From Riptortus pedestris (Eukaryota; Arthropoda; Insecta; Hemiptera; Alydidae): a stretch of DNA of 64,000 nucleotides. The DNA is taken from the NCBI GenBank assembly GCA_019009955.1, contig CM032228.1, forward strand, positions 133,314,501-133,378,500. Direction: 5' to 3'. Position numbers and translations under genes: made by a program. The notes beneath the pieces are model-generated. The model had not been told where the DNA came from, searched no databases, and saw only the letters and a list, made by a program, of their open reading frames with translations. Below are positions 19,759-21,189 of this stretch, piece after piece (the first letter of the stretch is position 1; the number at the start of each line of letters is the position of its first letter).

Positions 19759-19822
19759 CATTACGTAATGCCTCTGCATTTCAGTTTTCTCTTGTGCTAA
19801 TTTCTCGATCTCCATCTTTAAA
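19759..19822 (-). CDS. gro: groucho/TLE alternative exon, version 2 (mutually exclusive candidate)
   Basis: This 64-nt duplicate of the exon at 21126-21189 has acceptor gtctgtctgcag and donor ATG|gtgagt. It encodes [10 protein letters not shown] followed by [11 protein letters not shown]. It keeps the family's Thr and Met but has Ile for Cys and Gln for Ser. Compared with its twin, 11 of 21 codons differ but only 4 change the residue; seven are silent, which indicates long-standing purifying selection on both copies. The phase (1+63 nt) is identical, so either can join the 98-nt exon before and the 45-nt exon after. A potential branch site (tgacctaac) lies about 30 nt upstream of the acceptor. 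A 5-bp stem with a 4-nt loop lies between branch site and AG. Confidence 0.95.
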
Positions 19823-19833
19823 CTGCAGACAGA

Positions 19834-19847
19834 CACCACGGGTGGTG
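19834..19847 (-). promoter_or_regulatory. mini-hairpin in the splice acceptor region of alternative exon version 2
   Basis: The transcript strand reads CACCA-CCCG-TGGTG, a 5-bp stem with a 4-nt loop, 12-25 nt upstream of the exon boundary at 19822. It sits between a consensus-like branch site (tgacctaac) and the short pyrimidine tract. It interrupts what should be a pyrimidine tract and may weaken this acceptor. Confidence 0.4.
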
Positions 19848-21125
19848 GTTAGGTCACAAGACAAGTAAGTGCATGGTTAAGACTAACATTAGGTACAGTG
19901 TAACAAAAATACTAAGCGTTATTTATTAACACTGATGGGGTAAATGAAAAGAAGAGGCAATTCAAAACAGAAATACACATAATGCAACAATGACATAACA
20001 GTACCCTGGGGTTGAAGTGCTTTTTGCGGCTTTGTTATAACTGTTAAAGCATTTGTACTTAGTGCGAGACGTGCAAAGCGACCAATGTTAGAGCTATACT
20101 GTTCCAGCTTTTCCATATTTAAAGCACTTGTAGTTTTCAAATTCATACAATGTATCTCCCTCATTTTTAAAGATTATATGCAGAATGGAGAGAGCAATGC
20201 ATAACACACAATGGCATTAATGGCAAATAATTTTCTTACTGCCATTCATATAGGAGGAGTAAAATAAAACAGACGCCGGACTCCACTAAAAATGCAAAAT
20301 ATGTTATGCATAAAATTATATTTCGGTCAATCCGTTATGAAAAATAATTCGTTAGTAGAGGCAAATGCTGAATAGCTTTACATAGTTGGTCAATTAATAA
20401 GCAGAGTCATTTTATGTATTGCCATAGCTTTAACACGCAATTATTATTCATTTAATACAAAAAATAAATCTACACATGAAAGTAAAATTAGCCATTTAAA
20501 ACATTAGATTGTCAGTATAAACAATAGCTGTAGTGCACTTGATAATATCGAGTTATAAAAAGAGATTTCGAAACAATGGTAAAACAAATATTTTAAAGAA
20601 ATCGATAAATGTTTTTCCTATGTATATTTGAATAATGTAAATGACTTTTGCAGCCTTGATTTAGATAATATAAGAGATGCAAATTAACAATAAGCATTAA
20701 ACGTCGAGAATAAATATACACTACTTTCACACGACATCAAAATGTGGATACATGAATATTCAGTTCAGATATTAATTAAAATTACCCCTATGAATAATAT
20801 TTACGAAATAATTAAAAATAATTGCTGAAAGAATTAATTAAAAATATATAACTAGTATCCCATTTCTCACAGGGATAGTTACATCCAGAATTCCAACAAC
20901 CAAATAAATGATTAGTTCTGGTGCAAGTAAATTTATAAATTGTAACGAAAACAACGAAAAACATATATAGCTATTTGTCTAAGCTATTTTAGTAAGTAAT
21001 TGATTCATTTTAATAATTATAACCAGTAAAAATGAGGAGTGGGAAGAGATAAAATATTACAATTGGTGTGTATGGAAAAGCTGGAATGGTATTAGACTAG
21101 CGCTCATGGCACTTGAGGTCCTTAC

Positions 21126-21189
21126 CATGACGTAGTGCCGCTGGATCTCGATTTTCTCGCTTGCCAGTTTCTCGCACTCCATTTTCAAA
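21126..21189 (-). CDS. gro: groucho/TLE alternative exon, version 1 (mutually exclusive candidate)
   Basis: This 64-nt exon has acceptor ggcttttcag and donor ATG|gtaagg. It supplies one base to the split Asn codon and then 21 codons: [10 protein letters not shown] followed by [11 protein letters not shown]. Vertebrate TLE has [10 protein letters not shown] and [11 protein letters not shown] here, so this version keeps the ancestral Cys and Ser but replaces Thr and Met with two isoleucines. The segment continues the amphipathic, leucine-zipper-like helix of the Q domain that builds the Groucho tetramer. It is the more GC3-rich of the twin exons (17 of 21 third positions are G or C). It lies 1,303 nt upstream of its twin in the transcript and cannot be used together with it without a frameshift. 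Confidence 0.96.

What the first reader, a model, noticed from the sequence alone, without database searches (positions are those of the whole stretch)
19759..21189. Tandem, mutually exclusive exons in the Groucho/TLE tetramerization helix
Two 64-nt exons, 1.3 kb apart, encode alternative versions of the same 21-residue Q-domain segment. They differ at four residues (Cys/Ile, Ser/Gln, Ile/Thr, Ile/Met) and at seven further codons silently. Every other part of the segment is conserved with flies and vertebrates. The segment belongs to the amphipathic helix that assembles the corepressor tetramer, so the swap could set homo- versus hetero-oligomer preference or binding of TCF or other Q-domain partners. 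I know of no described exon pair of this kind in Groucho. Exon duplication and purifying selection are read from the sequence; the effect on oligomerization is inference.
Basis: partly seen in the sequence, partly recalled or inferred. Interest (0 to 1): 0.92.

Follow-up and report, generated by a model that had tools for sequence, protein, structure and literature searches.

The report
Alternative Groucho corepressor exons in insects
A bug's Groucho-type gene, which helps switch other genes off, carries two interchangeable copies of one small exon, and comparison with other insects suggests that both versions have been kept for hundreds of millions of years, so the animal can probably choose between two forms of the part through which Groucho proteins join together.

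Summary
On the minus strand, two 64-nt exons (A 21189-21126, B 19822-19759), 1303 nt apart, have canonical splice sites and encode [21 protein letters not shown] and [21 protein letters not shown]: 11 codons differ, 7 silently. Either alone keeps the frame; both together, or neither, gives an early stop. The gene is a heteropteran Groucho of a 'TLE4-like' clade, not the orthologue of fly gro; that orthologue, elsewhere in the same genome, showed one such exon. Among listed homologues the four differing residues travel as linked sets: A-type (C-S/T/N-I-I) and B-type (I/L/V-Q-T-M); none of 200 segments combines Ile/Leu/Val at position 5 with Ile/Val at 13. On trees with the segment masked, A and B alternate within one orthologous clade; an ant pair is 97% identical outside the segment but A in one, B in the other. 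Best reading: an old mutually exclusive exon pair in the Q-domain helix, two of four swaps at predicted coiled-coil core positions. Exons, constraint and frame logic are shown; splicing in this species, exclusivity in RNA and any effect on oligomers are inferred. I found no report of it in the papers searched. New member of a known kind, unusually old and well placed.

The parts
26682..26779 (-). Upstream constant exon, encodes [32 protein letters not shown] plus two bases of the next codon
21190..26681 (-). Intron upstream of exon A; donor GTAAGT, acceptor TTTTCAG
21126..21189 (-). Exon A (64 nt): [21 protein letters not shown]; A-type signature C-S-I-I
   Evidence: the identical segment is in five listed proteins, among them Lygus, Nesidiocoris and Triatominae
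19823..21125 (-). Inter-exon intron, 1303 nt, donor GTAAGG, acceptor CTGCAG; a complementary arm pair (21020-21125 with 20063-20175) is not above the window's own background
19759..19822 (-). Exon B (64 nt): [21 protein letters not shown]; B-type signature I-Q-T-M
   Evidence: no listed protein has the identical segment
6857..19758 (-). Intron downstream of exon B; donor GTGAGT, acceptor TTTTGCAG
6812..6856 (-). Downstream constant exon, encodes [15 protein letters not shown]
1..64000 (-). The whole window lies inside one Groucho/TLE4-like gene of about 182 kb (contig C1:133238437-133420649); exon 1 lies right of the window, exons 5 to the end lie left of it

Best explanation
The two exons are an old, conserved pair of mutually exclusive exons in the TLE4-like Groucho gene of insects. 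Each mRNA takes exon A or exon B. Either keeps the reading frame (64 nt = 3n+1, completing the codon left open by the upstream exon). Taking both puts a stop inside exon B, taking neither a stop in exon 5, so such RNAs would be unproductive. The choice swaps 21 residues inside the long Q-domain helix, four of which differ: two at predicted coiled-coil core positions (Cys or Ile at a, Ile or Met at d) and two on the outer face (Ser or Gln at f, Ile or Thr at b). Most likely effect: tuning stability and partner preference of the Groucho coiled coil (A-A, B-B, A-B, and with the fly-type paralogue) and the outer surface shown to partners. Shown: both exons, splice sites, frame logic, constraint, two linked sequence types in one orthologous clade. 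Inferred: use of both exons in this species, regulated choice, effect on assembly.
For: Anatomy and frame. Constraint. Signatures: of 200 segments in 196 listed proteins, 63 have Ile/Val at position 13; these 63 also have Ile/Val at 15, none of them has Ile/Leu/Val at 5 and none has Gln at 10; 20 have Ile/Leu/Val at 5 and none of these has Ile/Val at 13. The 28 further segments of the third search show no crossover either, by inspection. Window B shares 19 of 21 residues with B of Bemisia, Menopon and an unnamed transcript-sized contig and 18 with ant B, against 17 with its own A. One clade, both types: Camponotus (A) against Temnothorax (B) 742 of 763 identical outside the segment; segment-masked ML tree of 63 proteins that I picked from the lists (38 A, 15 B, 10 other dropped from the count): at least 8 A/B switches, with supports of 98-100 inside ants and 99 for a B mealybug beside an A contig; a FastTree of 81 proteins shows the same interleaving. 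Control: the paralogue in the same genome showed one such exon in C1:244727400-244773000. Structure: one predicted helix 33-106 holds segment 54-74; heptad; homology to TLE1 Q-domain structures 4om2/4om3.
Against: No RNA of this species was available. No relative's genomic DNA was available (two pattern scans of prokaryote and viral collections gave 0), so that both exons sit side by side elsewhere is inferred from proteins. The protein collection is clustered at 90%, so I could not show A and B isoforms of one gene in one named species; the same-species pairs that I compared were paralogues or had the same segment. Window B is no nearer to Planococcus B and Vespa B (17 of 21) than to its own A (17), and nearest to the Diptera C-Q-T-M form (20 of 21), so B may be partly ancestral rather than a sharply separate type. 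Diptera members of the clade that were listed show only C-Q-T-M. Parts of the tree outside Hymenoptera have weak support (36-56), and inside ants Acromyrmex is not placed with Atta as known relationships (recalled) would have it, so some of the 8 switches may be tree error. The helix model is modest: pLDDT block means 71, 61 and 44 across the segment, residues 73-84 under 50.
Confidence: 0.86

Rival explanations
1. One copy is a dead or unused duplicate; only one exon (probably A) is spliced.
For: No transcript of this species was seen; the exact A segment is in five listed proteins, no listed protein has the exact B segment.
Against: Open frame, both splice sites and only 4 amino-acid changes among 16 substitutions; B-type segments in listed proteins of Bemisia, Planococcus, Menopon, ants, bees and wasps, and a near form (L-Q-S-M) in Nasonia.
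Confidence: 0.07
2. The A and B types are marks of two different paralogous genes in insects, and the window copy of B arose by local capture from a paralogue.
For: Several insects do have two Groucho paralogues, and Hymenoptera seem to have a further A-only TLE4-like one.
Against: Both exons lie in one gene 1.3 kb apart in the same frame and strand; the fly-type paralogue here has C-S-T-M, not I-Q-T-M; A and B alternate inside one orthologous clade.
Confidence: 0.05
3. Assembly artefact: two haplotypes of one exon placed in tandem.
For: None found beyond the general risk.
Against: 16 of 64 bases differ, introns around the two are not clearly alike, the assembly is in 138 contigs for 1.08 Gb, and both types occur as separate sets in other species.
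Confidence: 0.01
4. A variant of the best explanation rather than its opposite (odds overlap): the exons are real alternatives but the choice is not regulated as exclusive; decay of frame-shifted RNA alone makes it look exclusive.
For: Frame logic alone removes A+B and skip products; a 1303-nt intron is not too short to splice, the sites are GT-AG, and the complementary arms are not above background (21 of 400 places in the window reach the same score).
Against: Linked differences kept in several orders are expected when each version has its own role; not decisive.
Confidence: 0.3

Closest known systems
Tandem duplicated, mutually exclusively spliced exons (human set in PMC9741552; insect set in PMC3303723)
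   Same: Adjacent homologous exons of equal length and phase, conservative differences; PMC9741552 says most such events are ancient and most substitutions conservative (passages)
   Different: The words Groucho, TLE1, TLE3 and TLE4 do not occur in the main texts of PMC9741552 and PMC5740500, nor groucho, gro or transducin in PMC3303723 (supplements not read); here the target is the self-association helix of a corepressor
Groucho/TLE Q domain (human TLE1 4om2/4om3; Drosophila Gro)
   Same: Window segment aligns without gaps to the TLE1 Q domain
   Different: TLE1 has the form C-S-T-M; neither window exon is identical to it (18 of 21 each)
Groucho genes of the planthopper, NlGro and NlGro1-L (PMC8835753, passages)
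   Same: Hemipteran with two Groucho-type genes
   Different: NlGro1-L is reported to lack a Q domain; the main text has no occurrence of exon, isoform or splic-; here both genomic paralogues have a Q domain
FGFR2 IIIb/IIIc exon choice (recalled; one search listed no paper on its intronic stem)
   Same: Two neighbouring alternative exons of one segment
   Different: An inter-exon RNA stem is part of the FGFR2 mechanism (recalled); here the complementary arms are not above background

Membership tests
Mutually exclusive tandem exon duplication | Adjacent exons encoding homologous alternatives of one segment | tested here: met
   17 of 21 residues shared, 1303 nt apart, same strand
Mutually exclusive tandem exon duplication | Same length and phase, canonical splice sites on both | tested here: met
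   64 nt each; AG/GT on both; same codon completed
Mutually exclusive tandem exon duplication | Exactly one exon per mature mRNA | not testable with these tools
   No transcripts of this species; frame predicts stops for both and for neither
Mutually exclusive tandem exon duplication | Both versions kept in relatives | tested here: inconclusive
   Both types in orthologous proteins of other insects, but not shown together in one named genome; pattern scans of two collections found nothing
Groucho/TLE corepressor | Q domain plus C-terminal WD40 propeller | tested here: met
   Exons for Q domain, WD region and stop found along C1:133238437-133420649; 698 of 738 aligned residues identical to the triatomine protein P0124
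Orthologue of Drosophila gro | Groups with fly gro on a tree | tested here: not met
   Window gene groups with Triatominae/Lygus/Nesidiocoris proteins; fly gro (recalled sequence) groups in the clade that holds the paralogue at C1:244.7 Mb
RNA-structure-guided exclusive splicing (docking/selector or inter-exon stem) | Long-range pairing beyond background, conserved in relatives | tested here: inconclusive
   1 of 300 shuffles reaches the score but 21 of 400 random places of the same window do too; no relatives to test covariation

The most novel reading that the evidence does not exclude
An exon switch inherited from an early winged-insect ancestor, overlooked because the fly gro gene belongs to the other paralogue, resets the core of the Groucho coiled coil (Cys or Ile/Leu/Val at one a position, Ile or Met at a d position) so that cells choose which Groucho isoforms and paralogues assemble together, giving a splice-controlled change in corepressor assembly or partner choice.
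Probability: 0.3. Interest if true: 0.82.

Novelty: new member of a known kind. Interest (0 to 1): 0.62.

Why it matters
Groucho self-association through the Q domain matters for some of its repression and less for other targets in flies (PMC4148212, passages; PMC3272004, passages). A natural, conserved two-state version of that helix would let one test what the assembly state does without artificial mutants. It also points to a Groucho paralogue and isoform pair outside the clade of fly gro, which would matter for work on Wnt, Notch or segmentation in bugs, bees and ants.

Tried and rejected
Inter-exon RNA stem: a duplex of 74 pairs (-63.6 kcal/mol) between intron positions 1-106 and 951-1063 beat 100 shuffles of the 5' arm and only 1 of 300 shuffles reached the alignment score, but 5 of 150 random places of the same window fold lower (down to -71.9 kcal/mol) and 21 of 400 reach the alignment score. 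I do not claim it. Steric exclusion (intron too short) and mixed U12/U2 sites: rejected from the sequence (1303 nt; GT-AG sites). Vertebrate and nematode gene models with repeated Q segments or repeated neighbouring exons (P0002-P0007) looked like the same trick at first; by inspection they join different TLE genes or repeat whole stretches, so they were not used as support (they stay in the 200-segment tally). Same-species pairs: Ornithodoros P0188/P0220, Tachypleus P0091/P0196, Atheta P0118/P0134 and Prorops P0041/P0169 differ by 16-23% outside the segment, so they are paralogues, not isoforms; Vespa P0206/P0208 are isoforms with the same segment. No Rfam match at gathering threshold in the window. 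Pattern scans of genome contigs and viral contigs for the exon with donor: 0 hits. The two ORFs of at least 110 aa in the window were not searched further. Searches translated the exons in the wrong frame (P0001 is that product). On re-check I withdrew a poly(A) claim for the retrocopy (my notebook, still has it), lowered the stated helix confidence, and set the confidence of the best explanation from 0.87 to 0.86 because B of Planococcus and Vespa is no closer to window B than window A is.

Full report
What is there. On the minus strand of the window the constant exon 26779-26682 is followed by exon A (21189-21126), exon B (19822-19759) and the constant exon 6856-6812. A and B are both 64 nt, have AG/GT borders, complete the same split codon (Asn) and end on a codon border. 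They agree at 48 of 64 bases; 11 of 21 codons differ, 7 silently.

Frame logic. Upstream exon + A + downstream, or + B + downstream, is open into exon 5. A followed by B shifts the frame and meets a stop inside exon B. Skipping both shifts the frame and meets a stop in exon 5. So only one-of-two products encode the protein. That such RNAs are degraded is general knowledge, not tested here.

More than chance. A degenerate pattern for the segment plus donor matches exactly twice in the window, with 0 in 100 shuffles. With 16 substitutions a neutral copy would differ at 10-11 residues on average and contain a stop in 44-54% of trials; 4 or fewer residue changes occurred in 0, 1 and 1 of 20,000 trials at three mutation biases. 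The simulation starts from A and counts pairwise differences, so it says that the pair as a whole was constrained. Flanking intron is not clearly alike, with a borderline value (9 of 200) for the 400-nt upstream flanks. No third copy was found in the window.

Whose gene. The genome is held: 1.08 Gb, 138 contigs; the window is C1:133314501-133378500. Matches to a triatomine Groucho (P0124) run from exon 1 (MYPTAGMNAAAAVAAAARHP, C1:133420590-133420649) to the last exon (C1:133238437), about 182 kb, so the whole window is inside this gene. 698 of 738 aligned residues equal P0124. Residues 14-81 of my exon A query match Lygus, Nesidiocoris and Triatominae proteins at 100%, so the window is most likely from a true bug; I did not identify the species. 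On a tree the gene groups with these bugs (0.91) in a TLE4-like clade. A second gene (C1:244727500-244816573) falls, with support 1.0, in a clade with fly gro (recalled sequence) and beetle, moth and midge 'groucho' (which printed only the surroundings of four tips). In that paralogue I found one segment exon ([21 protein letters not shown]) in C1:244727400-244773000: a within-genome control.

Relatives. Three protein searches each listed the best 120 of 3171, 3517 and 3345 hits. The first two lists gave 197 proteins, of which 196 have the segment by my pattern (P0088 has not), 200 segments in all. They show linked signatures at positions 5, 10, 13 and 15. A-type: C-[S/T/N]-I-I, 63 with Ile/Val at 13; these have Ile/Val at 15, none has Gln at 10 or Ile/Leu/Val at 5. 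B-type: [I/L/V]-Q-T-M in Bemisia, Planococcus, Menopon, ants, Prorops and unnamed contigs (11 segments); the third search added bees, Vespa and Polistes, and Nasonia with L-Q-S-M. Other listed lineages have C-Q-T-M (molluscs, Diptera TLE4-like) or C-S-T-M (vertebrates, insect gro), and some chelicerates L-S-T-M or L-T-T-M. The four positions are exactly the four at which the window's two exons differ. The lists are ranked by similarity to my queries, so the counts describe what was listed, not frequencies in nature. Similarity does not sort perfectly: window B shares 19 of 21 with Bemisia and Menopon B, 18 with ant B, 17 with Planococcus and Vespa B, 20 with the Diptera form, and 17 with its own A.

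One gene, two types. Camponotus (A) and Temnothorax (B) agree at 742 of 763 residues outside the segment. On a maximum-likelihood tree of 63 proteins that I picked from the lists, with the segment masked (A 38, B 15, other 10 dropped from the count), at least 8 A/B switches are needed; supports inside the ant part are 98-100, and a B mealybug is sister (99) to an A contig. A FastTree of 81 proteins shows the same interleaving. Swapping four or five linked residues back and forth that often is implausible; a representative drawn from two isoforms explains it. Limits: the collection is clustered at 90% identity, which hides isoforms; I could not show both in one named species; I had no relative's genomic DNA; several backbone nodes outside Hymenoptera are weak (36-56); and Acromyrmex is not placed beside Atta as known relationships (recalled) would have it. 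If the reading is right, the pair predates the split of Hymenoptera from the bug and louse lineage; 'hundreds of millions of years' rests on general knowledge of that split.

How it may work. AlphaFold2 on P0124 with 48 rows gives one helix 33-106 containing the segment (54-74), but with modest confidence: pLDDT block means 71, 61 and 44 across the segment and under 50 for 73-84; whole model 57.8. The TLE1 Q-domain structures 4om2/4om3 are close homologues; a review describes a dimeric coiled coil that dimerises again to a tetramer (PMC7458405, passages). In a 3-4 heptad register L-Y-L-(C/I)-L-K-(I/M)-Y, the Cys/Ile swap is at a core a position and Ile/Met at a core d position; Ser/Gln (f) and Ile/Thr (b) face outward (the register is my assignment). 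In fly Gro the L38D,L87D protein does not oligomerise (PMC4148212, passages; PMC3272004, passages); by my count on the recalled fly sequence L38 is the first Leu of this register. So the swap plausibly tunes coiled-coil stability or pairing preference; that is inference.

Splicing control. The inter-exon intron is long enough to splice and uses GT-AG sites. A long complementary pair in it looked striking against shuffles but 5 of 150 random places of the window fold lower and 21 of 400 reach the same alignment score, so I make no claim.

Literature. Four searches for Groucho/TLE with mutually exclusive, duplicated or alternative exons listed no paper on such an exon pair, judged by titles and abstract starts; of the eight listed I checked passages of one (PMC9339319), where the terms were unrelated. 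Groucho, TLE1, TLE3 and TLE4 are absent from the main texts of PMC9741552 and PMC5740500, and groucho, gro and transducin from PMC3303723. The library holds only openly licensed papers. The structure paper of the TLE1 Q domain was not held. The isoforms themselves are present in public annotation under names such as 'isoform X2', so the sequences are not new; the exon pair as a conserved feature appears undescribed in what I could search.

Noticed in passing
G000 C2:117002604-117004541 (L001, L042), outside the window: An intronless, open 645-codon copy of the fly-type Groucho paralogue; its matches to that gene's exons and 3' region are 98.5-100% identical except one 59-nt side match (83%). 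A recent, intact retrocopy that could be a working retrogene; its 3' end (and any poly(A) tail) was not reached in the fetched stretch.
   Followed up: partly
G000 C1:244727500-244816573 (L003, L007, L034-L036, L039-L041): Second Groucho gene, in the clade of fly gro, with one copy of the segment exon in the stretch read; beetles, moths and this bug appear to keep two anciently separate Groucho genes.
   Followed up: partly
proteins P0153, P0162, P0166, P0167, P0169, P0171, P0172, P0176, P0178, P0184, P0195: Hymenoptera appear to have a further TLE4-like paralogue; its 11 members on the tree are A-type, beside the one that alternates A and B.
   Followed up: no
window 21020-21125 and 20063-20175: Two complementary arms in the intron between A and B (74 possible pairs, 7 of them G-U); not above the window's background, but worth a covariation test with related genomes.
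   Followed up: partly
window 17274-17457, 46054-46281, 53133-53283: Intronic simple and short tandem repeats (AG, 59-nt T-rich unit, CT/CA).
   Followed up: no
protein P0221: A protein of Sarcoptes scabiei with the Groucho Q segment is named 'collagen type iv alpha-3-binding protein' in its source record, probably an annotation error or a fused model.
   Followed up: no
proteins P0187 and P0190 (Babylonia areolata): Two Groucho records on different contigs depart from Met at segment position 15 (KTEAQ, KTDTQ), where 134 of 137 listed segments that are not A-type have Met: possible lineage-specific paralogues.
   Followed up: no
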